A stretch of 64,000 bases of DNA, from NCBI GenBank assembly GCA_963921825.1, contig OY997588.1:12724001-12788000 (forward strand), in the 5' to 3' direction. This document shows, in pieces, positions 8,849 to 50,357 of this stretch. The stretch comes from Erodium maritimum (lineage: Eukaryota > Streptophyta > Magnoliopsida > Geraniales > Geraniaceae). The notes below the pieces were generated by a model that worked only from the letters and a program-made list of their open reading frames with translations, had not been told where the DNA came from and made no database searches. Position 1 is the stretch's first letter. Each line of letters opens with the position of its first letter. The position numbers were made by a program, and so were the translations under genes.

Positions 8849-11800
8849 CTAACCATGAAGGCCAGCTGAAGTTATGCATAACTTCAGCTTCTCCGTTGTA
8901 ACAACCTTGGTCAACATATCTGCAGGATTCTTTGACCCAAGGATTTTCTTCAAGGAAAAAGTACCATCATTCATTAATCCTCTAATGAAATGATATCTCA
9001 ACTGGATATGCTTCGTCCTAGCATGAAACACAGGATTCTTGGCGAGATGAATGACGCTCTGACTATCGCTATACAAAGGACTGTCTGTCTGTTTCTTCCC
9101 TAACTCCTCCAAGAAATTCTTCAACCATATCATTTCCTTTCCAGCTTCTGAAATAGCCATGTACTCAGCTTTAGTGGTTGAAAGAGCAACACTCTTCTGC
9201 AGTCGAGACATCCAACTAACTGATGTGCCACCCAAGGTAAAGACGTACCCTGTAGTACTCTTCCTTGTGTCCAAACATCCACCTAAGTCTGCATCAGAAA
9301 ACCCTTCTAAGATTACATCTTTCTTCTTGAAATGTAGTGCAACCTTTGAAGTGCCTTTCAAGTAGCGAAACAACCACTTGACTGCTTCTCAATGCTCTCT
9401 CCCAAGATTAGACATGAATCTACTAACAACTCCCACTGCATGTGCAATGTCTGGCCTTGTGCAAACCATTGCGTACATCAAACTGCCCACTGCTGATGCG
9501 TACGGGACTTTAGCCATTTCTTCCTTGTCTTTATCCGTCTTAGGTGACTGTTCTCGAGTGAGTTTGAAGTGACCTCCCAACGGCGTACTTCTTGTCTTAT
9601 CATCTTGGAGACTGAACTTGTTCAAGATCTTCTCAATATACTTCTCTTGAGATAGCTTTAAACTTCCATCAGATCGATCCCTACTGATGCTCATTCCGAG
9701 TATTTGCTTCGCTGCGCCTAAGTCCTTCATCTCAAACTCTTCAGACATCTGTCTCTTCAACTTGTTGATTTCTACCATGTTGGATCCTGCAATCAACATG
9801 TCATCAACGTATAACAATAATATGATGTAGGATGCATTGAAATGCTTGACATAGCAACAATGATCCATGACACATCTTGAGTATCCACTCCTCATCATAA
9901 AATCGTCAAACTTCAAGTACCACTGTCTTGGTGCTTGTTTCAGACCATACAAACTTTTCTGCAATTTGCAAACTAGGTCTTCACTCCCAGCTCTCTGGAA
10001 ACCCTCTGGTTGTACCATATAAATATCTTCGTCAAGATCACCATGTAAGAACGTGGTCTTCACATCTAGTTGCTCTAGATGAAGATCCTCTGCAGCCACG
10101 ATACTTAACACAAGCCTGATAGTAGTCATCTTGACTACTGGAGAGAATATCTCGTTGTAGTCAATCCCCTTCTTCTGTTGAAAGCCTTTGACTACTAACC
10201 TTGCCTTGTGCCTCTTGCTACCATCATGTTCTTCCTTGACCCTGAACACCCATTTATTTTGTAGAGCCTTTTTCCCAGCCGGTAACTTAGTCAATGACCA
10301 AGTTTCATTCTTTTCAAGAGATTTCATCTCTTCATCCATGGCTGACTCCCACTTAATCGAATCATCCATTTGAACTGCCTCTGTATAACACTGAGGCTCT
10401 CCATTCTCAGTTAACAACAGATAATGTAGTGATGGAGAGAATCGTTCTGGAGGTCTTGAAACTCTGCTCGATCTCCTCACTTCAGCTATTGGGTTAGCCG
10501 GTACTCTCTCCTCATTATTTTCTTGTAGTTGACTTTCACTGCCGCCTATAACATCTTCTATTGTAATATCTTCCAACATTGCTTCTTCCTTGCCTTCGGG
10601 TTCTTTAGTGATATCTTGCTCCACACTCAAGCGATCCTTGTACATAGTGTTTTCACATAATGTGACATCTCTGCTTCTGATGACTTTCATCTTTGACTCA
10701 TCCCAGAATCTATACCCCATGTCATTAGATCCATAGCCAATGAATGCACACTTCTTTGCTTTTGGATCAAGCTTGTCTCTGTCGGAATCCTTTACTCTCA
10801 CATAAGAAACACAACCAAAAACTCGCAAATGTTGAAGATTTACCTCTTTTCCACGCCATTCTTCTTCAGGAATCTTGAATCCCAAAGGAACTGAGGGTTC
10901 ACGATTGATGAGGTATGCTGCTGTGCTCACTGCGTCTGCCCAAAACCTTTTAGGCAATCCTGCTTGAATCCTCATACTCTTCGCCCTCTCGTTCAGCGTT
11001 CTGTTCATCCTCTCAGCAACACCATTATGTTGGGGCGTCTCAGGCTCAGTCTTTAGCATCCTTATACCATGCTCAACACAATAATCAATAAACTCATCAC
11101 TACTATACTCACCACCATTGTCAGACTTTAAACACTTCACTTTTAAGTCAATTTCATTCTCAACAGCAGCTTTCCACTTCTTAAAGGTATTAAAAACTTC
11201 ATCCTTGTGTTTTAGAAAGTAAACCCATACCTTTCTTGTGGAGTCATCAATGAAGGTGACATAGTAGCGAGATCCTCCAATGGATGGAACTTTTGTAGGT
11301 CCATACACGTCTGAATGCACCATTTCCAGCTTGTTTGCCTTAGGAGGTTTCCCTGACTTTGCAAAGCTAACTCGTTTCTGCTTTCCGAACACACATGGTT
11401 CGCAAAAACTAACCTTCACATTCTTCAGTTCTGGAATCTTCCCCTTTGAAGCTAACATCTTCATTCCTTTCTCACTCATATGCCCAAGTCGTTGGTGCCA
11501 TAGAGTTGAAGGATCAGGCCCATCAATAACTGCATTAACCTCTTCCACTGGCATCTCCGCCATGTACAAAGTTCCTCTCTTCCATCCTCGAGCAATAATC
11601 AAATTCCCTTTTGATACCTTCCATTGGCCGTTCTTAAAGGTTATACCGTATCCCAAACTGTCCGGATGACTTACAGAGATCAACATTCTCCTTATGGTAG
11701 GGATATACCTTACATCTTTTAACGTCCAAATTGTACCCATGGGAGTTTTGAGATTCACATCTCCTATGCCCGCAATTTCTTCCGTCTCATCATTGGCTAG

Positions 11801-12727
11801 ATGAACTATACCTTTTATAGGTCTAAAATTCACTAGCATGTTTTTATAATGGGTAGTATGGAAAGAATCACCTGAATCCATGATCCATGACTCAACCGGG
11901 CTTTCTACACAACAGATCAAAGCATCATCTTCAAATTCTTCTGTCGCATTCACCGAGTTGTTCTCCTTTCTTTCCTTCTTTGGGTTCGGGCATTGACTCT
12001 TGAAGTGGCCAGTTTGTTGACAATTATAGCAAGTCACGCCTGCTTTGCTCTTAGATTGTCCTTTCCTTCTGGACTTCGATCTGCCTCGCCCTTTGTTCTT
12101 ACCCCTTTCATAATTCCTACCTCTTCCGTCCACGTTCAACACGGAGCCTGACGATTCTCCAGAATTCCTTCTACGAATATCTTCCCCAAGAATCAAGTCT
12201 CTTATCCCCTCGAACGACAGTTTAGTAGATCCAGACGAACTACTAACTGCTGTGACGGTTCCTGACCAAATATCAGGTAACGAAGAAAGCAACAATAGGG
12301 CTTGTACCTCATCATCGAATTTAATATCCACTGACACTAATCTGTATAGTATCGTATTAAATTCGTTCACATGATCGGTAACATTAACATCTTCCCTCAT
12401 CTTCGTATTAACTAATAGACGAATCAAATATACCTTGTTTGATGCAGACGGCTTTTCGTACATATTTGATACCGCCTTTATTAGTCCGTAGGTAGTTGTC
12501 TCCTTCATTACGTTGTAGGCAACGTTCCTTGTCAGTGTCAACCTCACCGCACCAAGTGCTTGTCGATCTAGCAACTGCCAATCGGCCGAACTTAGCTTCT
12601 CTGGTTTGGTCTCTGACAACGGTTCATGTAGCTTCTTCTGGTACAGATAATCCTCAATCTGCATCTTCCAGAATCCAAAATCTTTTCCATCGAACTTGTC
12701 GATTCGAACTTTCCCATCTTCTGCCAT
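8849..12727 (-). pseudogene. Copia gag-pol polyprotein with one nonsense codon
   Basis: One frame from the Met at 12727 (an upstream in-frame Met lies in the LTR) to 8849, broken only by a TGA at 9389-9391. Order of domains: gag (FDGKDFGFWKMQIEDYL, UBN2-like); CCHC knuckle CYNCQQTGHFKSQC; aspartic protease WIMDSGDSFHTTH; GAG-pre-integrase LWHQRLGHMSEKGMKML; integrase with HSDVYGP, KSDNGGEY and PQHNGVAERMNRT; reverse transcriptase with NKWVFRVK, DVKTTFLHGDL and LLYVDDMLIAG; RNase H with SDADLGGC and ALSTTKAEYMA. The stop falls between reverse transcriptase and RNase H, at a position where the family usually has Trp (REH-W-x-AVKW). The protease has DSGD where the family usually has DSGA. Without readthrough RNase H would be lost. 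Confidence 0.92.
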
Positions 12728-12750
12728 TGCTCCCACTTGCCACGAACCGG

Positions 12751-12762
12751 GCTCTGATACCA
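12751..12762 (-). promoter_or_regulatory. Primer-binding site for initiator Met tRNA
   Basis: TGGTATCAGAGC on the minus strand, two bases downstream of the 5' LTR. This is the standard plant iMet primer site for reverse transcription. Confidence 0.9.
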
Positions 12763-12764
12763 GT

Positions 12765-13103
12765 TGTTGGGGTATAACAACGTGGAACAATATTCAAGAA
12801 AGAAGAAACCAAGGGAAAAAAAGCAATCACACAAGAACACAAGAATTTACGTGGTTCGGCAAGTTGCCTACGTCCACGGTCTCACTACTCTCTTCTTATT
12901 GCTCTCACAATGAATGAATATTTTGGGTTTACAAGTACATGGTATTTATAGGAGAAGACAATGGGTAAAATAAGGTAGGAATTAGGTTTCCTAATCATAA
13001 TAGGAAATATCCTCTAATTGCCTACTCAAGTCTCTTACCTAAATCTATTAGGAAGACTAGACCTTTCCTAAATAAAATAGGAAGTCTCCACACAACCCTA
13101 ACA
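12765..13103 (-). repeat. Copia LTR (5' LTR relative to element)
   Basis: 339 bp, same ends and length as the LTR at 8393. It contains the element's promoter in the minus orientation; a precise TATA box was not assigned. Confidence 0.95.
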
Positions 13104-37530: not shown

Positions 37531-39710
37531 ATGTCCTTCAAAAGCATAGTCCGGGAGTTGAAGGAGATGAAGGATGGGATTGGGAATATATCGAGGCGAG
37601 GTCTGGAGGTAAAAACATGGCGTGGCCGGTCAAGGTCACATATTGCTCCTGACCAGGCAACCTTGCCATTGGAACAAACTGAGCAGAGTCTGTGGGCAAA
37701 TCTACCACCTGAGTTGCTGCTGGACATTATCAGAAGGGTTGAAGACAGTGAGACCTCATGGCCTGCTCGGGCTTCTGTCATCTTTTGTGCTTCAGTATGT
37801 AGGTCATGGAGGGAGGTTACAAAGGAGATAGTGCAAACTCCTGAGCAATGTGGGCGACTTACATTTCCTCTCTCGTTGAAGCAGGTACACCTTTCTTTGT
37901 TCCTTCTAAGCTGTTGTTTTCTTAACTTGATTGCCTTCTTTAATTGTTTTCTTATCTATTGTTACTTCTTCCTCTTTTTGTAAATAGCCGGGTCCTCGTG
38001 AGTCTCCAATACAATGCTTTATTAGGAGGGATAGAGCAAATTCTACATATTACTTGTACTTCGGCCTGGTTCCCTGTAAGTCATGTTACTCTCTTATCCT
38101 TATGTGGGTTCCTATAATGTGAAGTAACATCTTACAAATACTCATCTTGAAGCACTTTATTTATCATTTCCCTCAACTCACTGCTTCAAGGTTCCAATTT
38201 ATAACTTGGGTGTCATTTTGTTTGCTTTGAAAATTGGAATTGATGAGAGTGGTTTGGAGTTTACAGGAACGCTAGTCTGTGGTTGGTTATCTTCCTTTCA
38301 TGAATTATTCATGGTTGATTGTTATTAGAACCATTCCATTTCAATTTTATCTGTTTGTGGCATGCTGTCTATGGAAGTTTATATGGGATCCATCTACATG
38401 CATGCATTATATGTATATATAAATATTTCAAATAGGGAAACATCTGACAACTTCCCAAACAAATTGATGAATTGCATGATCTCCTTACGCATTTCACCAT
38501 CAATTTTCTATATTGGTGTTTTCTCCTCTACTGCGCTTATAGACTTCTAGCTTTTCTTGATAGTGTGTGAATCATCATGTATATTCTTTCGTTTTCAGAT
38601 TTTCCCATCTAAATGCATCATCTGTTTCCTATGCCAAACCATACACATTCATTATCCCTCAATATCATATCCTCTTACTTTGTACCCATGATATAGACAG
38701 CACTGACCTTCAGAGGCCCGTGGTAAAATATGAGCCCATTGAAGGGCTAACTTAAGACGATGAGATAATAGTCTGAGGTTGCTAGGTGGTTCTCATTAGT
38801 TCTCTTCATTTACAGCTGAGGTTTCTAGTGACAAGTTATTGCTAGCTGGGCAAAAGGTCAGAAGGGCAACTACCACAGACTTCATAATATCATTGGCTGC
38901 AGATGATTTTTCACGAGCCAGCAGTATGTATGTTGGAAAACTAAGGCAAGTTTTGGTCACCATTCTTGCCATTCAAAGGGTACTTTCCCTTTCATGTTGT
39001 AATAATTTCTTAATGCACATATCTGCAGGTCTAATTTTCTAGGTACCAAGTTCACCATTTTTGACAGTCAACCCCCATGTGAAGCAGCTGCTCAACCCAA
39101 CAGTCGGTGTAATAGAAGATTCCATTCTAAGCAGGTTTCTCCCAGAGTTCCTGCATGTAACTATTCTGTAGGAACCATCTCTTATGAACTCAATGTCCTC
39201 CGCACCAGAGGGCCAAGGAGGATGCACTGTGTCTTGCACTCCATTCCCATCTCTTGTATTCAGGAAGGAGGCACTGCCCCAACACCAACATCATACCAAG
39301 GATCCTTTGATGAGCAACACTCCCCTTCACTGGGATTGAAGGGAAAAGGACTGGTTGCAGATCCTTGCTCCTCAAGCTTCCTGGAGTCTCAAAGCCAAGA
39401 GTTAGTTCATCCTAGTTCAGAAGAGCCATTAGTTCTCAAGAACAAGGCTCCCAGATGGCATGAGCAACTACAATGCTGGTGCCTAAACTTCAAAGGACGT
39501 GTTACAGTGGCTTCTGTGAAGAACTTTCAGCTTGTGGCGGCTGTGGAGCCATGTCACAATGTTTCTGCAGCAGAGCAAGAGAATGTGATCTTGCAGTTTG
39601 GAAAGATTGGAAAAGACATCTTCACGATGGATTATCGGTATCCTCTATCAGCCTTCCAAGCCTTCGCTATCTGTTTGAGTAGCTTCGACACCAAGCCTGC
39701 CTGCGAATGA
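37531..39710 (+). CDS. Tubby-like F-box protein (TLP), complete, four exons
   Basis: TLPs join an F-box, which recruits SKP1/cullin for ubiquitin ligation, to a tubby domain that binds phosphoinositides at the plasma membrane. Exons: 37531-37884, 37988-38075, 38816-38945 and 39029-39710, giving 1254 nt (417 residues), the normal size. The start [20 protein letters not shown] is the conserved plant TLP start; the in-frame codons before it have no Met. The F-box lies at about residues 48-100 ([20 protein letters not shown]...[12 protein letters not shown]). The tubby domain runs from about 118 to the end, with [64 protein letters not shown] and terminal FDTKPACE. The intron 3 donor is GCAAGT after AAG; the only nearby GT breaks phase. 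No disabling change seen. Confidence 0.96.
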
Positions 39711-42497
39711 TGTTCATGTCATTTGGACAGGTAATCGTGGGTTTTGCCAAACTGCTTCCTTGGATTATCTAATTTATCTTTTCCCACAATGGAAGCTCAC
39801 CTTTGAGTTGTTATGACAACTTGTGGGATTACTGAATTGTTTTGCTGCAACTGTTGGATTAAGAACAAAACCTTGTGAATCCGCTTTATTGTACGCTAAT
39901 TATCTCATGACTAATTGCCTACCTTATCAGAACCCACTTTATTGCAATTTTCTTTATACCTACATTTGTAGGCATTTCTATTCGCAGCATCAAATGACGT
40001 ATACTAGTAGTAGTGATGATGTACCTAACTTCACTTTTTCGTTAAAGTGATTTAGGTTATGGCTCTTAGGCACTATTATATGCTATGGTTCTGCCTTTTG
40101 AAGGATTTGATAATAGTTGTATGTGGAGCTTATAGTTTTAGGCCCTTTAAGGTTTGTTTGGCCCATGTGGAATCTTATTGTAACAAGGTTGTTGATAAGC
40201 CAGCCTTTTTGTTAGGTACTTGGAAGTTGGTCTCTTCTTTTATCTCAATCTCTCTCTTAAAAAGGACTTGTTTATTTCACTTTGGCATTTCCCAGGTCTT
40301 GTGTGGTGCGTGCACACTCGTTTCATTGGTTCTTGATGCCCTTGGACTGCGGCTCTTGGGAGCAACAATTTGGACACTTTGGGCTTCTTTCCCACCGCAA
40401 GGACTAAAGTTTTGGAGTTGAAAAATGTGAAGGTTACAAGGATGGTTTAGAGTGAGCTCTGTATTACTTAGCTATTTGTTTTACAATTCCAGGTCCATAA
40501 AATACTAAAATTAATTAGGCGGTTATAATCGTCTCGATCCTAATTTGAATTTTTAATTGCATAATTGATCTGTTATTTTTCAACTTGACTTAATCAGATC
40601 AATGGAATAAAATAATCAAGTTATCATCTGTTTCGAATTTTGTCCCCCTGATTACATGAACACAAAAATACAAAAGAATAAGAATCGGGAAGAGGAAAGA
40701 AACTGATAAAAGTCGTACATATGGAAAATATTCTGTAATTAAGAAAATTTAATTCTAACCTTTATCAAAATGGTTGCTGTAGCAATTGGTTGAATTCCGC
40801 TAATAAGATCTTAGGGTTCAAATCCCACCAGCGGTGATAACGCTATTTCTTTGCTATCTTACCGGTCCACATAAAAGCATTACTAGCCGAATCGTGATAG
40901 ACCCACTATGGATTTGTATTATTAATGATTTAGCGTTTAACGCCCGTCGATAAAGTGTACCACATGACCCACTGATGGTACAATTGGCTAGCTTTTACAC
41001 CTCACTCATGGATAGTATCCGTTAGCTAGCTTACGGTTAATACTCGTTGGCCAACTTTTTAACCACGCCCACAGATTGTATCTGTTGGTTAGGGTTTCCA
41101 CCTCACCTACGGATAATATCCGTGGGGTTAGCTTTTTCACCTCACCCACATGATGTATTCATTGGCTAAGCGACATGCCAGATTTGAAAAATATATATCA
41201 GGAAATCGTGCACCCAAACATACATTGAACTTGCATAGTTAACTTGTGATGTAATCATGTTGCCACACATACACAAGTGGTGAGAAAACTGTGAAATACT
41301 TATACTAGACACACAAACAGTCAGTTCACCACATGCAAGTTCAAATAGTTGTCCATAGTCTATATTCAGCAAATATAATAAATAAGTTTATAACAAATAT
41401 AAGTTTGAAGACATTACAACGGAGGGTGGACAACGAGACAGTAGATGACAAGGAAGCGGTTGATTAGGAGCGCATCATTGTTTCAAAGCATGTCTTCGTC
41501 ATCTCAGTCTGATTGGCTTATAAGACAACTTTTATTTGGGCGACTATTTGTGTCTCTATTTCCTTCTTCATAGCTTCCTCCCTTTGTAGGTGTTGATCCT
41601 CCATCTGAAAGATGCAAGTCCTTAACTCTTCCAGTTCCTCTAATGAACTACCAGACCTCGCGTTGGAGGAACAACCACCATACAAAATTTCTCTCACTGT
41701 TGGGAGCTTAATCATCTTCCTAAGCTCACAGCGCATACAACCCTTCGGAGGTTTACTAATGACTAGCTAGAGGAGGGGAACCTCTTGTTGTAGACTAAGT
41801 GTCTTAACTACTGAGGGGGAGGAATTCTCGCATTAGTTCAGCGCCAATCCAATCATCTTCTCCAAGGCGTCCTCCATCACCTTTCGGTCCTTTACCTGAA
41901 ATACAACTAATATCAAATCAAATGGTTTGCTCTTACTTTGGTTCATTATTTGCTCTCATTTTCTTCATTTAGTTATAACGTTACAAGCAAATGAAAACAC
42001 ATTTCATGAGAGAGCATATACAAACAACAACACTTCAATGATGGTTTGTTCATGTATAATAATGAACACAAACAACATATAATATATTCTAACAATAAAC
42101 TAATATGTTCATTTTTAATCAACGATAACAGTATGATGTTTGGAATTATTTTAATCATCAAATGGAAGTTCTACTAGAAGTAAAAGATCTAGTCTTCAAA
42201 AGAAAATAAAGGCCTAGGTACACCACTCGAATTACAAATAAGAGCATGCCAAGATTGACACCTCAAACCACATAACCCGACCCAAACAAAGGGTCTAAAC
42301 AGATCTATTACAGAGAATTTACAATCATGAAGTAAACAAGTACTACAAACTCAACAAAGGGTGAAACAAAGTTACCAAAACACGGTTTAAAAACCTATTT
42401 TTCAAAACATGAAGTACAAAGGTAAAAACAACCAAAAGAACATAGGCCTATTACCTAGATTTTCTAACCACAAAACAAGGATAATGTCTAGAATGTG
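39711..42497. other. TLP 3' flank, diverged repeats and a possible transposase relic
   Basis: 39711 to about 40440 is probably TLP 3'UTR and flank. 40440-40860 is AT-rich and empty. Diverged direct repeats lie at 40960-41168. A minus-strand 72-codon ORF at 41518-41736 (LEELEELRTCIFQMEDQHLQ, coiled-coil-like) recalls the C-terminal coil of CACTA-type transposases, but this is weak. 41880-42497 is AT-rich with nothing supported. Confidence 0.4.
40960..41168 (+). repeat. Five diverged direct repeats of about 38-57 bp
   Basis: The unit is roughly ACCCACGGATAGTATCCGTT, then a GGCTAGCTTTTT-like stretch, then ACCTC. Copies begin near 40966, 41005, 41066, 41105 and 41145 and vary in length. Each contains GGAT..TATCCG-like short dyad symmetry. 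Confidence 0.6.
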
Positions 42498-42690
42498 AAC
42501 ACAAAGATTATATATGATAATATTTAATTTATATATACAAGACATATAAACTAAAGTAAGAACACAAAGATTATATATGATAATATTTAATTTATATATA
42601 CAAGACATATAAACCAAAGTAAAAACACAGAGATTATATATGATAATATTTAATTTATATATACAAGACATATAAACTAAAGTAAGAACA
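42498..42690. repeat. 63-bp minisatellite, three copies
   Basis: Units start at 42498, 42561 and 42624, each beginning AACACA(A/G)AGATTATATAT, with only a few differences. A partial fourth start is at 42687. The block lies where the N-terminal part of the first array copy would be expected. Confidence 0.9.
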
Positions 42691-42729
42691 AATCATTTAT
42701 GTAATACAAAACATTAATGTATTATAAAG

Positions 42730-42869
42730 ACTTTCAGGGAGGGGCATTGACACCCGCGTATATAAATTTGTTCCATATATGGTATCGAGCGAATGCAAGG
42801 CTGGATGCCTTGGAAGATCTTGAAGATGCACAACGAAGCTTATTGTCACGACTAAACCGATTTGGTTAA
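42730..42869 (+). pseudogene. Array copy 0: C-terminal relic of the small-protein family
   Basis: The frame reads NARLDALEDLEDAQRSLLSR then LNRFG and a stop at 42867-42869. It matches the C-terminus of copy 3 (NARLDELDKVVDDQRRLLSQ, then LNRSS) and, more distantly, copy 1 (NAKLDVLVHVEEREQFIL). Upstream DNA matches copy 3 back to about 42730, then is lost at the minisatellite. Only the tail remains. Confidence 0.7.
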
Positions 42870-43357
42870 CTTGCACTCTACTTCATAGTGTCAGCCACAA
42901 TATTTGGATGGATCCTGTTAAGGTTAAGTAAGATCTATTTGTAATGAATGAATGTTTAGAGGTTATAGGAATGTTTAAGATGTCTAATGAATGGATGTTA
43001 TATATTTTTAACGATGAGCTGTGTATACCGATTGTCCCATTCAGAAAAGACGATCAGTAAGATCTTGTTTTCTTCCGTAAGAAAAAAAAAACTATCTATA
43101 TCGATCGGGAATTGATAAACAACCGATCGGTCTAAAAAATAGATACGGTTAGCCGATTTTTCCGTATCATTCACATTGTTGGTAACTGGACTGACCTGAC
43201 ATGAAGGATGGATGGATGGATGGATGGTCACATTGGATGTCTCTTTGGGAAGACCAAGAATATAATCCCTGTTAAAGTGAAATCCAATTAGGTCAAAACC
43301 TACTCACCTCTCTACCCCTTCCTCCTCAGTTCTTACACCTTCTTCAGCCACAACTCC

Positions 43358-43365
43358 TATATAAA
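43358..43365 (+). promoter_or_regulatory. TATA box of array copy 1
   Basis: TATATAAA, 76 nt before the start codon, followed by CTCATCTCATCTCATCTCAT. The same layout precedes copy 4 and, in weaker form, copy 2. Confidence 0.7.
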
Positions 43366-43440
43366 GAGAGACTCATCTCATCTCATCTCATATACTTTAT
43401 TTTTCCCTCCCTTCCTCCACCATTATTCCGATAACCTAGA

Positions 43441-43827
43441 ATGGACTCGAACACAGTTTTTACCCCAATTGAGAGGGAGAAGATGGCAAGCTATCAACGT
43501 GAATCCCAGGCCACACTGTTGAGGCTCCAGGCTACTAAGTTTCAGCTGCTAAGGTTGCGACATGAAGTGGCACAACTGGTGGACGAGATTAGGATAGTCC
43601 CTAGAGGAGAATTAACAACCGAGTTTACATGTGTGTCTAGCTTGTTGGAGCGTACGAATGCAAAACTTGATGTGTTAGTTCATGTAGAAGAAAGAGAACA
43701 ATTCATATTGCCAAATTTTGACCGTTTTTTAGGGTTTGTTGTAATCAAATTATTTGTATTCTGCACTCTCTTTTTAATATGGATTTCGCTCGTCGTTAGT
43801 ACTCAATTATTATGCATTTTTGGTTGA
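43441..43827 (+). CDS. Array copy 1: small helical protein of unknown function
   Basis: I do not recognise this family. The open frame has 128 codons. Residues 1-98 align with the other copies: MDSNTVFTPIEREK start, a heptad-like run (LLRLQATKFQLLRLRHEVAQ), VDEIR, RGELTTEF, then NAKLDVLVHVEEREQ. Charge and Leu spacing suggest a coiled coil. The last 30 residues (VVIKLFVFCTLFLIWISLVV...) are hydrophobic and correspond to 3' untranslated DNA in copies 2 and 4, where a stop comes first. A TATA box is at 43358 and the sequence CCGATAACCTAGA precedes the ATG, as in copy 4. It is the only copy without a break. Expression is unknown. Confidence 0.6.
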   Translation: MDSNTVFTPIEREKMASYQRESQATLLRLQATKFQLLRLRHEVAQLVDEIRIVPRGELTTEFTCVSSLLERTNAKLDVLVHVEEREQFILPNFDRFLGFVVIKLFVFCTLFLIWISLVVSTQLLCIFG

Positions 43828-44249
43828 ACATGGATTTTACTCATACGTCTCGATCGTTCTTACGTGCATGCATGTGATGAGACCCGATGCCATTCAGTTG
43901 TATGACCTTTCAGAATATCTCGATCACATGTTTTATTTGGACGATCGATTCTACAACCGAATGCATACTACTTTAGGGTTCAGAGCGCATTCATGTCACG
44001 ATCGGTTATGTTATAGGACCGATCGATTTAAAATGTTCCTTCGTTGGTCGTTTAGTTTCCCGTCCTTGTTGTAGTGGTATGTCATGTACTGGCACCTTTT
44101 GTGTAGTAGGCACACTAAACGGAGAAACTTCCTTAGAGAAGGCAAGTAATATATTCCCTGTTACCAATTCAAGTCAAATCAAATTTGAAAACCTAACTCA
44201 TATCTTAACCTCCGTCCGCCTCGGTTCCTTCATCTTCATCCACCCTCCC

Positions 44250-44256
44250 TATAAAT
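44250..44256 (+). promoter_or_regulatory. TATA box of array copy 2
   Basis: TATAAAT, 104 nt before the ATG at 44354, after a C/T-rich block like those upstream of copies 1 and 4. Confidence 0.55.
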
Positions 44257-44353
44257 GAAGACACACTCCCAATTTTATTTTACTCCCTTCATCATCTCAT
44301 CTCTGAGCAACCCCCTCCCTTCCCTTTCTCCATAAATCCGAAATTTATCCAGA

Positions 44354-44587
44354 ATGGACCCGAACATAGGTTTATCCCGAGCTGAGAGGGCGAACATAGA
44401 GTGTTCTAGACTTCTCGTTCAGGAGAGGCTCTTAAGGTGTCAATCGGTTAAGACTGAGCTATTAGCGGTCCGAGCTGGAGCAGCACAACATATGAAGAAT
44501 TTAAGGAATGCCCCTGGAGAGGTACATGTGGCACAATTTAGACGTATTGAAGCATTTCCAGAGGAATCGAAAAAAAAAACTTGGTGA
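44354..44587 (+). pseudogene. Array copy 2: shortened by a frameshift in an A run
   Basis: MDPNIGLSRAERANIE start, then LLVQERLLRCQSVKTELLAV and NAPGEVHVAQFRRIE, aligning with copy 1 along its length. The frame ends after ESKKKTW at a ten-A run (44570-44579). In the neighbouring frame, coding similarity goes on (LGEFNQEKAESLFVLSHCEY) to a stop at about 44655, so one base of A-run slippage would explain the truncation. The current product would be 77 residues. The slip could also be a sequencing error in the homopolymer. Confidence 0.6.
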
Positions 44588-45162
44588 GTTTAATCAGGAG
44601 AAAGCAGAATCACTGTTTGTATTGTCACATTGTGAATATTCTCTTTCTTGGTAGGATATGTTTTAATAACGTTAGGGTTTGCTGTAATAACGTTATTTAT
44701 GAGTTTTTTTATTAGTGTTCTGCACTTTATGTTAATTATATATGTTGCTTATCTGTTAGTATTATTCAACTATTATGCACTTTATGTTTCATATGGTTGT
44801 TCCTCTAAATTAGTATTACGGTATGCCTCGATCGTATGTGTAATATTTGATCGTCCTACCATGCATGCATGTGATGTGACCCAACAATTAAGTTCTTTTG
44901 AGCAATCATGACTTCTCGACCGGACAAGTGTCTTAGCCAATCTAGACGTATTGTATATGAGTGAGTAATGACATGCTTTATGAGGTATATGCATACCCTC
45001 CCTGTCAACCTTGATGTCATATTCTTCTTGGCAAGAGATGGAATATATTCCTTTCTCCAAAATTTAAAATCACCACCACACCGCACCACCCACCTCTACA
45101 AATAAGACTGTTCTTATCTTTAGTTCATGTATTGACATCAAAATTAGTAGACATACGAAGAG

Positions 45163-45439
45163 AATGGACCCCAACTCGACTGAGAGTATTGCACGACTTG
45201 AACGTGAAGCCCAGTTGCTAGTCGAACAGATACAACCAGTGAAGACCAGTTGTTGAGTATTCGAGCACATGCAACACAACGACTAAAGGAGCGTAGAGAC
45301 TTCCAGGAAGGGGTCTGGACATCCCAGAATAGAGGTTTTTTTCCAAATATGACATGAAGCGAATGCAAGGCTGGATGAATTGGACAAGGTTGTAGATGAT
45401 CAACGAAGACTATTGTCACAACTAAACCGATCTAGTTAA
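45163..45439 (+). pseudogene. Array copy 3: frameshifted relic
   Basis: Starts MDPNSTESIARLEREAQLLV, then a stop after VKTSC. Similarity moves to a second frame (LLSIRAHATQRLKERR) and a third (NARLDELDKVVDDQRRLLSQ then LNRSS, stop 45437-45439). At least two indels. Upstream TATA-like sequence (CTACAAATAAG near 45096) is degenerate. Confidence 0.65.
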
Positions 45440-45901
45440 CTTACATGTAGCTTCATATTGTGTAATGAATAGTGCTAGGGTTAAGTAAGGTTTATGTGTA
45501 ATAAAATGATTGTTATGAGGTTATATAAATGTTTAAGATGCCTAATAAATGAATTTTCTATATTTTTGACGATAAACTGGGTACACCGATTGACCGTTTC
45601 ATAACAGACGATCGGTGAGATCTTGTTTTTTTTAAGTATCACGAGCTGTCATTACCGATCGAACTACAAACTAGACATGTTTGTCAGGTTTTTTCTTATC
45701 TTTCTCATGGCTGGTAAATGGAATGACCTGATCTGACATGTACTGAACACCACTGATGGGTGGATGGTCACAATTTATGTCTTCTTGGGAATGCAAGGTA
45801 TATATTCCCTGTTACCAATTCTAGTTAAAGCCAATTTCAAGACCTACTAACCTCTCCACCCCTTCTTCCTCGGTTCCTACACCTTCTTCAGCCACAATTC
45901 C

Positions 45902-45909
45902 TATATAAA
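45902..45909 (+). promoter_or_regulatory. TATA box of array copy 4
   Basis: TATATAAA, 61 nt before the ATG at 45970, followed by AGAAACTCATCTCAT as in copy 1. Confidence 0.6.
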
Positions 45910-45969
45910 TAGAAACTCATCTCATTTACCCTATTTTTCCGATCGACTCCTCAAATCCGATAACCTAGA

Positions 45970-46263
45970 ATGGAGCCGGACACAGTTATGTCCCCAACTG
46001 AGAGGGAGAAGTATGAAACTTTTTGAAGAGCCGGGGAGGAGAGGTTGTTGAGGTTCGAGTCATATAAGGCTGACATGCTATCCCTCTGAGCTCAAGCGTC
46101 ACAGCGGGTGGACGAGATTAGGAAGGTCACCGGAGGAGAATTAACAACACATTTTAAACGTTCCTGCAAATTATGGGAGGGCACATATACGCAAATGGAT
46201 GCGTTGGTTCAAGAAGAAGAAGTTCAACGGCTAGCATTGGCAGTTGATGCGCGTGGGCGTTAG
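45970..46263 (+). pseudogene. Array copy 4: relic with two in-frame stops
   Basis: The frame reads MEPDTVMSPTEREKYETF, stop, RAGEERLLRFESYKADMLSL, stop, AQASQRVDEIRKV, GGELTTHF, then QMDALVQEEEVQRLALAVDA and a stop at 46261-46263. It aligns without gaps to copy 1 over most of its length, so the two stops are point changes. Its terminal stop sits where copy 1 reads through into a hydrophobic tail. Confidence 0.7.
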
Positions 46264-48388
46264 GGTCTGTTGTTATAACGTTATTTATGAGCTTTTTCTG
46301 TAGTTTTCTGCACTTTATGTTTACTATGAATGTTACTCGATTTGGTATTATTCCAGTCTTTTGCAGTTTATGTTTAATATGGATGTGCTCAGATAAATTA
46401 GTATTACTGTTGAACTCAATCGTCTTGTGTTCGTATAGATACATGAATGAACGTCTCGATCGTTTAGTGTTTGTATGGATACCTGATTCACCGTCTCGAT
46501 CGTTCCTACGTGCATGCATGTCATGTGTCCTAATGTCATTCAGGAGTATGACCTATCTGTATATGTCGATCGGTCTCTATTGTAGGATGATAGATTTTTA
46601 TTCTGCTTGAGTACTTGTTTATGGTTTCGATAGTTTTTTGACCCGGTCGATTATAGTATGGAACCAATCTATTATGTTTATACACCGATCGATATACTTT
46701 TTAAATAAATCGGTGTTTTACGTTAACGATCGGTTGTGTGTCTACTCCGATCGGGAACAGACACGCCCTGATCGGGAACAACAACTTTTTATTTTTTGGG
46801 CTTCAAAATATATTCAATATGCTACTTGATATATAGCCCTTGGAAAAAGAAAAATATTGGCGCAAGTTTGAAGCTAATCAGAGTACAAATGAAGCGGAAA
46901 AAATTAAATTAGTTAATTGGTAAAAAAATGGACACTTGTGCACATGACACCGTGCTATTACAATTATACCCTTACTTGTGTGAAAAAGACTGAAAGTGAC
47001 GTGTATTTGGGTGAAATTGGGGTGATGATGTGACATCTATGTGAATGTTGAAATATAGATGTATGTGGTTCGAATGAGTTCTCACCGTTTTTAAGATAAG
47101 AGGAGTTTTTAACCGATTTGTCTTTTTCTTCCCTATCTACAATTGTGTACATCTCTTTGCAAGACAACTTGGTCATGGCCACCACACAAGGCCCATACAT
47201 TGTGTTTCCCTTTTGAATTATTGCATTTAATATATTTATTTACTACTGTTTTCAAGATTATTTTGTGGCCTTTGCAATGTATTTCCAAATAAATACTAGT
47301 AAATTTTTTTATACTGCAAATAGCAATTAATTATGTTTGCTTGCTGCAGGTAAATTCTCTTTGGTGTTTGACATCCCAAAGGGAAGGTTTGATTTTGTTT
47401 TTTTTTTGTTTGTCTATTGGCAACTCAACTCTGTGAATTGCTTTGTAATGAAATAGAGCAAAGTAAATTGACAGTCTATTACTGGATGCAAGAACTACCT
47501 TCTAAACCCATTTTACTTTGTTCTGCAGCATGATGGATCTCATGTTTGGTTAAACTATAGATACATTGTTCAATAAAAGAAAGACAAATGAAATCGAAAA
47601 CAACTTCTGGTTGCTGTTTGTGTAGTGTTCTGCGTAGGAACGAGACATTTGCAATTTGCCAAACATCTCATAAAACAGATGCAGATACAACTTGGAGGCC
47701 AATTTGCAACTCAAAAACAAGGTCTGTTTCATTGCCCCTACAGGACCACACCAACAGTACTTTTATCTCCCCAACAATAATTCCTTACTGCCATTTTCAG
47801 TCACTATCTCTCTTTCAGGGGTTTGGACCCCTTTGTGTTTTGTGGTCCTATCTGTTACTTTCTCTTTTCCACTCCACACAGGCAACATATCTTTAGTCAC
47901 TATATTTGCAAAACCAGAAGTTGATCTTGATGTTGCCTTGCCTTGCACATTTATAACTGATAGTGTTACTAAAACGATAACTAATATACACAGTAAAAAA
48001 TAGGATGATGAATATAATGCTATATCATTCGTCCAGATCCTGATGTAAAAATCCATGAGATGATGAATATGATCCAATCCACAAACAATTGCACGTCCTG
48101 CTTGAGAAACACAAGTTCAGAAATACTTCAGTTCCCATCGAACTTATTATCAACATGGTTATAATATTGTTGGATGTAGAAGTATACCTGTTAATTACAA
48201 GTGGGAGAAGAAACCATCGATGTAGTCTACTGAAACCCGCCATTGTAAAAATTTTGTAAATCAGTCTCCCAAGGCAAAAGTGATTGAACTTGCTGCAATG
48301 TAAATAACTAGAATAAGCACAACATAGTTACAAAAGAGTAGCATATGAGTCAATTATGAGGAATGATATACATTTCCAAGTTACTTAC
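46264..48388. other. Intergenic: array 3' DNA rich in CGATCG palindromes, then the bHLH 3' region
   Basis: 46430-46780 contains many CGATCG/CCGATCGG-type motifs, like 43840-44040. 46800-47990 shows no gene; short frames there have no recognised domain. 48000-48388 probably holds the last exon or 3'UTR of the bHLH gene on the minus strand (see that entry). Confidence 0.4.
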
Positions 48389-49972
48389 AGATACAGGAGA
48401 GCTTGAAACTCTTGGTTGTGCCGTTTGTAGAGGATTCAGTGGCATAAGCATATCCATTTCACAATTTGCAGCAACTGGTTGTACTGAATTGGGCTGATTG
48501 TAGGATAGATTGGCCATTTCAGATAGTGTAGCGGAGACACAAGCAGGAAACTTCATAGGAGAGTCATTTTAAGGGAAAGTCAGTTTCAGTTGTCTAAATG
48601 TGTCACTATCAGAAGATTCAAATAGGCTGTATTTTTTTCTTACCTCCTTGGTGAAGATGTTGTCGATGCTCAATTCTATCCTGGGGTTCACATGAGCAAG
48701 TTTCATGGACAAAAACTGCAAGAAAAATTGTTGGGCTCAATTACAGAAGTGCTCAAGATTCATAAACATCAGTGACTAGTTGTAAAACTTCTTAGTTAAT
48801 TACCTCGACTTGTCTTTGTAGGGATTGAACATAATTGATGATTTCGTCAAGCATTCCGGCCTTTCCAGTTGTTTTGTGGCATCCAGGTACCAATTCTTGC
48901 AAAGATTTCATCTTCTTGTTGATCTTTTCTCTTCTGGCCTATATATGTCACAATGATACAGAACCTGAGATTAGAGCTGGCTTACGTAATCTTTACCGTG
49001 TCATATAACAGAGTAACAATCAAGTAAAAACCAAAAGTGGGAGTGAAAACTGAAACCATCCGTATCCATAGGATTGGAGTTTTTAACGGTTGAGACGCTT
49101 CCAAACTTAAATTTGGTAAGTTCCGACCGTAACGAAGTTTAGAAACATCTCAGCCATTAAAATTATGATTACTTTTCAACCTTCATTTGTTCCCTTCATA
49201 TAAGTAACATATGTGAAAATACTTAAGCTTTTCTTGGGGTAAAGACTTAATAAATTCATCATTTATCAAAAAAAAAACATATGTGAAAATAGAAGTGGAT
49301 TGTCTCTATTCCCGAAAACTTACTCTTTCTGCTAAGCTGTGACTGTCAGTGGCCTGTCCTCGGCGAGCCCTGACATGGACATAATCTTGTTTCTGATCCT
49401 GAGCATCTGGGATCTTGGAGTTCTCATTCGGAGTCTGTGCACAATGATCATCTTCATCAACAGCTCCTCTGTTCCTTCTTTTGTCTCTGCTCTCTTCTGC
49501 TATAATAGACTGAAAATAGATGATCATTAAGATGCAGTTCAGTGATTCAAACTTGAAGTAAGAAGAAAGAGGAAGAGTAACAAACCTCAGCTTTTCTCTT
49601 GTTGAAGCTGTTTCGAGCCACGGTGCATTTCATCATCTTCATCAACCCAGACTCTTCCTCGAGCTCCTCCTTCATAACGGGCACAGAAGCTCTGGAAAGT
49701 GCAGAGTGCTCCATGTCAAGAGAGCTCGTCGCCATCTCCGGAGATGAAGCTGAAGCAGAACGGAACTCATTACCATCTCCATGTACAGGAAAGGCAGTTG
49801 AACTGTGTTGGAGCAGGAGACCCTGAAACTGAGGCATTGCACTGAAATCAAAAGATTTGGGTTGGAACTGGTGCTGCTGCTGAAGCAAACTGTAGTTCAG
49901 CCTGAGCTGCTGTCGCTGGAGCACGGACATGTCAGCGCCGTTTCCGGCGAGGCAGCCGGGGAAGTTGAGCAT
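48389..49972 (-). CDS. bHLH transcription factor, BEE/HBI/CIB type (five exons placed; C-terminus unresolved)
   Basis: Exons: 49586-49972, 49324-49509, 48804-48938, 48644-48715 and 48389-48550, giving 314 residues in phase. The start is [15 protein letters not shown]; frame upstream of it is leader. Residues 171-236 hold the b[20 protein letters not shown], then [20 protein letters not shown] and [20 protein letters not shown]. The basic region keeps the His-Glu-Arg set that reads G-box/E-box [16 protein letters not shown] after helix 2 is typical of subfamily XII factors (BEE, HBI1, CIB), which act in brassinosteroid and light growth responses. A last exon should follow on the left: the phase-0 reading after the CAG near 48105 gives only DVQLFVDWIIFIIS... 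to a stop, unlike the family, so I leave it out. Function is inferred from family. Confidence 0.88.
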
Positions 49973-50357
49973 ATCTGAGGAAGTGGAAGTACAGAGTGCA
50001 GTGTGTGGAGGTATTGTGTAAGTGATTGATTGAAAAATGCAAGGTGGAGGAAATAAATAGAGGGTGTGAATGGATGAGAAGAGTGGGGAGTGGTCCCGGA
50101 GACACAAACCTTCATGTGGGAGTGAGTCTCCAATGTCCATTTCTGCTGCTGACGACGCCGTTTCAGCGGGTCCTTTTTGGCCTCTCTCTGTCTCTGCTTA
50201 CTGCCGCCACAAACTACCCTTTCAGAAGTTTTACTACTACTTCCTGCTACCAAAACTTATTAGGTCAAATATTTGAATTATTGATCTATGGGTTAAGGTT
50301 AAGTGCGGTATTTTGATCTCACAACGATTGAAAAATTCATATATGCAAGGAATTGTT
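49973..50357 (-). other. bHLH upstream leader/promoter
   Basis: No intron-exon signal is forced here. The region is leader-like near the ATG. It ends at the foldback element at 50358. Confidence 0.4.

What the first reader, a model, noticed from the sequence alone, without database searches (positions are those of the whole stretch)
42730..46263. Local tandem array of an unrecognised small helical-protein family
Five related genes or relics lie head to tail within 3.5 kb: copy 0 tail, copy 1 intact, copies 2-4 broken. They share a start (MDPN/MDSN...ERE), a heptad-rich middle, RGELTT-type and NARLD-type motifs, matching TATA boxes and a CTCATCTCAT leader. Copies 0-1 and 3-4 repeat as a block with a period of about 2.5 kb (the GAATGCAAGGCTGGATG block recurs 2570 bp apart; the ATGs 2529 bp apart). 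I know no named family with this pattern. Rapid birth and decay is typical of lineage-specific genes.
Basis: partly seen in the sequence, partly recalled or inferred. Interest (0 to 1): 0.75.

Follow-up and report, generated by a model that had tools for sequence, protein, structure and literature searches.

The report
Relic of a dispersed plant gene cassette
A decayed piece of a multi-gene cassette that occurs in many places of this plant genome and encodes unnamed small two-helix proteins sharing one striking promoter signal; the copy in this window looks dead, but the family has no match in the libraries searched.

Summary
Five head-to-tail related copies lie at 42.73-46.26 kb (c0 = 3' half only, c1 open, c2-c4 broken), with the block repeat at 2570/2529 bp. 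"Local array, copy 1 intact" needs correction. The window piece is a fragment of a longer ordered cluster. Copies from different chromosomes group by position in the cluster, so cassettes spread as blocks: about 141 places at 73 loci on all nine large contigs. Window c1 has lost its ancestral stop; its last ~31 residues are read-through spacer. Coding parts here diverge as fast as spacers: probably a relic. The family itself looks coding: a confident hairpin model (pLDDT 88), a third of full-length copies open, one subfamily (c8) more conserved in promoter and frame than around them, and a 31-bp bipartite palindromic promoter module found in every cassette position examined, though not before every copy (four hits in the window, one per c1-c4; none in 100 shuffles). 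CGATCG clusters 100-300 bp past the stops. No Pfam or PDB relative. Four related mid-chromosome loci join the cassette to a Mutator-like transposase, suggesting mobile passenger or accessory genes; this could not be tested genome-wide because the genome server stopped answering.

The parts
42725..46787 (+). whole stretch homologous to the dispersed cassette; it is a fragment, with other cassette genes missing on both sides
   Evidence: window 36-54 kb against 20 ten-kb stretches
42729..42866 (+). c0: 3' half of a c3-type gene (NARLD motif), cut off upstream
   Evidence: homology to other loci starts at 42725-42729 while L010 has the whole gene
43102..43129 (.). two CGATCG sites in the 3' spacer of c0
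43240..43270 (+). 31-bp promoter module of c1 (24 of 31 consensus positions)
43358..43365 (+). TATA box of c1, followed by CTCATCTCAT at 43372 and 43382
43441..43827 (+). c1: 128-aa open frame; about 97 aa are the family protein, the rest is read-through spacer after loss of the ancestral stop
43851..44025 (.). four CGATCG sites about 120-290 bp past the c1 coding part
44129..44159 (+). promoter module of c2 (23 of 31)
44250..44255 (+). TATA box of c2
44354..44642 (+). c2: homology over the full length, frame open only to 44587 (77 aa; L010 counterpart 99 aa)
44829..44834 (.). CGATCG site past c2
45023..45053 (+). promoter module of c3 (27 of 31; exact GGAATATATTCC at 45040)
45161..45432 (+). 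c3: broken c3-type copy (first frame ends after VKTSC)
45609..45661 (.). two CGATCG sites past c3
45780..45810 (+). promoter module of c4 (28 of 31)
45902..45909 (+). TATA box of c4, with CTCATCTCAT at 45916 and a CGATCG at 45940
45970..46263 (+). c4: full-length copy with two in-frame TGA codons
46457..46753 (.). six CGATCG sites past c4

Best explanation
The stretch is a decayed fragment of a mobile, ordered gene cassette of this plant lineage. Shown: the cassette holds at least seven diverged paralogous genes of about 75-100 codons, most with their own promoter (a 31-bp bipartite palindromic module, often a TATA box) and many with a CGATCG-rich 3' flank. Shown as a confident model for c1: the product is a two-helix hairpin. 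Shown: cassettes were copied as blocks to places on all nine large contigs, and in one mid-chromosome lineage the cassette is joined to a Mutator-like (MULE) transposase. Inferred: the blocks spread by transposition rather than by host gene duplication; the hairpins pair with each other or with partners as small adaptors or regulators; and the shared module puts the genes under one dimeric regulator. At this locus the genes are most likely no longer maintained.
For: Position-wise clades over chromosomes in the tree of 91 copies. Same order c3-c1-c2-c3-c4 at L010, with parts of it at L009+L028, L011, L020 and L023; window 36-54 kb shares with the 20 stretches only the block, apart from one 0.3-kb repeat match at 36.1 kb to L019. 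About 141 places at 73 loci, 19 of them with 3 or more copies. Promoter palindrome within 1 mismatch upstream of 48 of 66 copies tested, 0 of 66 in one base shuffle each; near 2 bits at the palindrome and mostly 0.1-0.6 bits farther away, over 22 representatives. Hairpin model pLDDT 88.4. Decay: c2-c4 broken, c1 stop lost, coding identity 0.80-0.90 against spacer 0.78-0.90 to five relatives. MULE in L013, L016, L026, L027.
Against: No terminal inverted repeats or target-site duplications were found for the cassette (only L026 was looked at for inverted repeats). 16 of 20 fetched 10-kb stretches, and the window, show no such MULE, and the MULE gene's upstream lacks the promoter module, so the MULE may be secondary. 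Indels are rarer in coding parts (15 in 3,850 bp) than in spacers (86 in 7,431 bp) over the five comparisons, which all share the window, so some frame constraint may have lasted after the split. Some copies lack the module (L017, and four of the gene starts in L010).
Confidence: 0.5

Rival explanations
1. Accessory genes of a MULE transposon family, working like VANDAL VANC or other convergent second genes: fast-evolving DNA-binding or partner proteins that protect the element from silencing, with CGATCG or the promoter palindrome as the recognised motif.
For: MULE transposase convergent with c4-type genes at four loci on four contigs (with gene places). CGATCG 92 in 23,474 spacer bases, 0 in 10,707 coding bases, 28 in 118,927 bases outside, over ten arrays, peaking +100 to +300 past the stop. 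omega near 1 over 30 open frames. Published VANC motifs lie in noncoding repeats (PMC5735166, passages).
Against: The four MULE loci are related copies, so not independent. The other stretches held lack this MULE. No known DNA-binding domain at cut-off. CGATCG is sparse in the MULE-linked loci.
Confidence: 0.2
2. A host gene family in lineage-specific birth and decay: real cellular genes spread by segmental and tandem duplication, with transposons merely inserted nearby.
For: Own promoters with TATA boxes; c8 subfamily with a 99-aa frame open in 7 of 8 loci, omega 0.61 (2 delta lnL about 4) and 89-93% identity over promoter plus frame against 56-81% in the flanking windows with enough pairs, save the last one (89%, 15 pairs).
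Against: Block-wise spread to about 73 loci without shared flanks where checked and 41 of 73 loci in the central 30% of the contigs fit mobile DNA better.
Confidence: 0.25
3. A noncoding repeat whose frames are chance.
For: omega about 1; two thirds of full-length copies without a frame of 80 aa.
Against: Homologous frames of similar length and pattern across strongly diverged subfamilies, confident fold, c8 constraint, indel depletion in coding parts.
Confidence: 0.05

Closest known systems
VANDAL21/Hiun and its VANB/VANC genes (Arabidopsis MULEs)
   Same: Accessory genes on a transposon; fast evolution; short motifs concentrated in noncoding DNA (PMC5735166 passages; PMC10398659 abstract)
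   Different: Here many paralogous 75-100-codon genes in an ordered cassette, one shared promoter module, and most stretches without the MULE; no binding shown; no VANC sequence was compared
Abermu MULEs with ORFR (PMC9168764, abstract and sections 13, 15, 16, 23 seen)
   Same: An extra ORF of unknown function, opposite to a MULE transposase, with little similarity between distant species
   Different: ORFR is one gene per element; here several paralogs, and TIRs not found
MuDR mudrB (as cited in PMC9168764; otherwise recalled)
   Same: Second gene opposite the transposase
   Different: No comparison with MURB was made; cassette structure differs
Pack-MULEs (recalled)
   Same: Gene sequence carried by a MULE
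   Different: Genes here keep their own promoters with a conserved module

Membership tests
MULE accessory gene (VANC/VANB, ORFR, mudrB kind) | Lies in the same element as a MULE transposase | tested here: inconclusive
   4 of 20 ten-kb stretches, all of one related lineage; not in the window
MULE accessory gene (VANC/VANB, ORFR, mudrB kind) | Element bounded by TIRs and a short target duplication (9 bp in Abermu) | tested here: inconclusive
   L026 only: no convincing TIR in the stretch held; more flank could not be fetched
VANC-like anti-silencing system | Short motif concentrated in noncoding DNA of the element | tested here: met
   CGATCG 3.9 per kb in array spacers, 0 in coding, 0.24 per kb outside, ten arrays; but few in the MULE-linked loci
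VANC-like anti-silencing system | Protein binds the motif and removes methylation | not testable with these tools
   needs binding and methylation data
VANC-like anti-silencing system | Sequence relation to VANC | not tested
   no VANC sequence was compared; Pfam found no domain at cut-off
Named protein family (Pfam, PDB) | Profile match above cut-off | tested here: not met
   12 protein queries, none at cut-off; PDB profile best E 0.16; Foldseek 526 matches to E 10, none at 0.001
Functional host gene at this locus | Intact frame under purifying selection | tested here: not met
   c1 stop lost; c1 set omega 0.94; coding and spacer identity alike, though indels are rarer in coding parts

The most novel reading that the evidence does not exclude
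A new kind of plant selfish cassette: a battery of at least seven diverged hairpin-protein genes under one palindromic operator and with a CGATCG 3' signal, which spreads as a block and has recruited a MULE, the proteins acting as a sequence-specific anti-silencing or self-regulating set on their own noncoding motifs.
Probability: 0.18. Interest if true: 0.82.

Novelty: new variant of a known kind. Interest (0 to 1): 0.55.

Why it matters
If the cassette is mobile, it shows a transposon-like unit carrying a whole co-regulated battery of fast-evolving small proteins, and it offers two concrete motifs (the 31-bp palindromic module and CGATCG) with which a binding protein could be sought. If it is a host family, it is an unnamed gene family of about 140 places with a promoter signal that marks most of the copies examined. 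Either way the copies here should not be annotated as genes without care: c1 would be called as a 128-aa gene with a false hydrophobic tail.

Tried and rejected
Known domain: Pfam on 12 proteins, PDB profile, Foldseek: only weak helical or sub-threshold matches. Rfam over the window at gathering cut-offs: only a tRNA. The MULE proteins in the window: none at E 1e-4. Promoter module upstream of the MULE gene in L026 (first 900 bases): none. Inverted repeats in L026 as TIRs: only a local pair, the c4 pair and short weak matches. Literature: no paper in the held library holds GGAATATATTCC; searches for MULE plus ORFR/mudrB/VANDAL, for coiled-coil small-protein MULE terms and for orphan tandem families listed nothing like it (listings only). 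One search was a script that crashed because one search had brought nothing. A shared left breakpoint near 43,234 was seen in L009, L012, L014 and L018; L012, L014 and L018 share one flank there, L009 has another; not explained.
Full report
OBSERVATION. The window is G000:C1:12724001-12788000 of an unnamed 763-Mb genome; contigs C1-C9, 62.6 to 158.6 Mb, make up nearly all of it, and I take them as chromosomes. Within the window, five related copies lie head to tail: c0 (3' half, 42729-42863), c1 (43441), c2 (44354), c3 (45161), c4 (45970), as the nucleotide profile finds them. The block repeat c0-c1 / c3-c4 is real: 70% over 989 columns, E 4e-124, with a 2570-bp spacing of the GAATGCAAGG element. 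c2, c3 and c4 are broken. c1 is open, but in the relative L010 the protein ends at a stop that the window has lost by a net 2-nt deletion, so the last 31 or so of 128 residues are former spacer. TATA boxes precede c1, c2 and c4 but not c3; the exact CTCATCTCAT leader is in c1 and c4 only.

THE FAMILY IS GENOME-WIDE. DNA and protein searches of the genome with c1 gave 38 and 65 matches; searches with three diverged members gave 25, 29 and 69. From the four protein searches I entered 65, 25, 29 and 68 starts (the 69th, at C8:38554231, was left out by oversight; it lies 74 bases from one that was entered). Merging starts within 250 bp gives 141 places, and within 20 kb 73 loci, on all nine large contigs; 19 loci hold three or more copies, and 41 of 73 start in the central 30% of their contig. 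The tool scores only its best candidates, so members may be missing; on the other side, halves of one split copy can count twice. In the fetched loci L009-L055 plus window a profile finds 107 copies, 73 of them full-length, 24 of these with a frame of 80 aa or more (a few such frames are only partly in register).

CASSETTES, NOT LOCAL BIRTHS. In a midpoint-rooted tree of 91 copies (those of the 107 that match 170 or more model positions) the copies group by position: c1 (support 1.00), c2 (1.00), c3, c4, c6 and c7. The order c3-c1-c2-c3-c4 recurs in L010, and parts of it in L009+L028, L011, L020, L023; the hits place c6 and c7 beyond c4 in several clusters. Homology of the window to these loci stops at about 42,725 and 46,787; in 36-54 kb of the window the one other match of 80 bp or more to the 20 stretches is a 0.3-kb repeat at 36.1 kb. 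The window piece is therefore a fragment of a longer block. In L009/L028 the c2 gene is split by an insertion of about 8.5 kb in all, bordered by a 1,694-bp pair of repeats 99.9% alike, read here as a young LTR retrotransposon.

WHAT THE GENES LOOK LIKE. The c1 protein is modelled as two long helices, residues 9-52 and 60-97, mean pLDDT 88.4 from a four-row alignment of window sequences; the other four models scored 71-81. Foldseek finds 526 matches up to E 10 and none at 0.001. Other positions of the cassette are homologous (profile of eight c1/c4-type members against six diverged ones, E 4.5e-13 to 0.0045 in a six-sequence search; the c8 sequence there is a composite). No Pfam match reached cut-off in 12 proteins.

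A SHARED PROMOTER MODULE. The palindrome GGAATATATTCC within one mismatch lies upstream of 48 of 66 copies that have a start and 330 bp upstream (of 107 copies; one base shuffle of each gave 0 of 66), and exactly in 7 of 8 c8 loci. Aligned on it, 22 representatives chosen by me share TCTTCTTGGGAAGGCAAGGAATATATTCCTT, with up to 2 bits per position at the palindrome against mostly 0.1-0.6 bits farther off. Every position c1-c8 examined has at least one copy with the module, but not each copy: L017 has none, and in L010 the first c3, c2, c6 and c7 have no hit of 21 of 31. In the window the module occurs four times, once before each of c1-c4, and nowhere else (none in 100 dinucleotide shuffles).

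A 3' SIGNAL. CGATCG occurs 21 times in the window (3.6 expected), 16 of them in the array spacers. Over ten arrays, the window's among them, it is 92 in 23,474 spacer bases, 0 in 10,707 coding bases and 28 in 118,927 outside (array limits set by me, and related arrays are not independent). It peaks at +100 to +300 past the coding end (79 of 96 sites within 500 bp of 67 genes; 46 of 71 genes have one within 400 bp against 2.9% of random stretches). Aligned spacers show sites turning over, often by C/T or G/A changes. The mid-chromosome loci L012-L016, L018, L024, L026 and L027 carry 1 to 6 in 9.9 kb.

SELECTION. Codon models give omega 1.04 over 30 open frames (23 of the 27 frames plus 7 of c8), 0.94 for c1, 1.16 for c4, 1.26 for c4b, and 0.61 for c8 (kappa was reported as 1.000; only open frames entered). 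Freeing omega improves the fit by 2.0 log units for c8 and by 0.32 or less for the others. Counting gave pooled ratios of 0.90 (c1), 0.82 (c4a), 1.01 (c4b), 1.68 (c4c, one pair), 0.64 (c2, one pair) and 0.54 (c8). The c8 loci are 89-93% identical over columns 900-1600, which hold the palindrome (column 1010) and the frame (1185-1485), and 56-81% in the other 100-column windows, save the first (one pair) and the last (89%, 15 pairs). For the window against five relatives, coding identity is 0.80-0.90 and spacer identity 0.78-0.90, but indels are 15 in 3,850 coding and 86 in 7,431 spacer bases. So the family has coding history and at least one constrained subfamily, while substitutions in the window copies run at the spacer rate. 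An open c1 frame is no strong evidence of function: 25 random substitutions leave 40% of frames without a stop.

THE TRANSPOSON LINK. In L026 and L027 translated stretches match the MULE transposase domain (E 7e-22), a SWIM zinc finger and the Plant_all_beta domain, the last just below its cut-off. The same protein is found at E 1e-4 in L013, L016, L026 and L027 and nowhere else among L009-L064 or in the window, each time convergent with a c4-type gene (places). A 486-bp tandem repeat (7.8 copies in L024) adjoins these genes in several stretches, as judged from the matches. The MULE's own upstream lacks the module. These loci are copies of one lineage, so this is one event, not four. A genome-wide test of this link was asked for many times from then on and never answered.

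JUDGEMENT. Shown: dispersed ordered cassettes, shared promoter module, 3' motif, a hairpin model, decay here, and one MULE-joined lineage. Inferred: spread by transposition and a regulatory or adaptor role. Published parallels are VANC genes of VANDAL elements (passages of PMC5735166; abstract of PMC10398659) and ORFR of Abermu (abstract and four sections of PMC9168764), neither of which has been shown to apply here.

Noticed in passing
L009:5818-7511 and L028:2690-4383: A pair of 1,694-bp direct repeats 99.88% alike bordering an insertion of about 8.5 kb in all inside a c2 gene: a very young LTR-type insertion into another copy of the cassette.
   Followed up: partly
L024:668-4414, also L016, L027: 486-bp tandem repeat, 7.8 copies in L024, next to family genes in mid-chromosome loci; repeat number seems to differ between loci.
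   Followed up: partly
window 42497-42690: 63-bp AT-rich tandem repeat, 3.1 copies, just left of the truncated c0.
   Followed up: no
window 9389-12793: Uninterrupted 1134-aa frame that reads like a Copia-type polyprotein (identified from recall of motifs).
   Followed up: no
window 39006-39710 and 49547-50197: Frames that look like a Tubby-like gene and a transcription-factor gene flank the array (recalled resemblance, not tested).
   Followed up: no
window 43234 and matching points in L009, L012, L014, L018: Homology of these loci to the window starts at the same point just upstream of the promoter module; L012, L014 and L018 share one flank, L009 has another.
   Followed up: partly
L020:6957-7102, L013:1641-1910, L024:6157-6463: A shared chimera: c1-type upstream DNA, a piece of c1 3' spacer and c2 upstream DNA are fused, as if c1 had been deleted once and the product then spread.
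   Followed up: no
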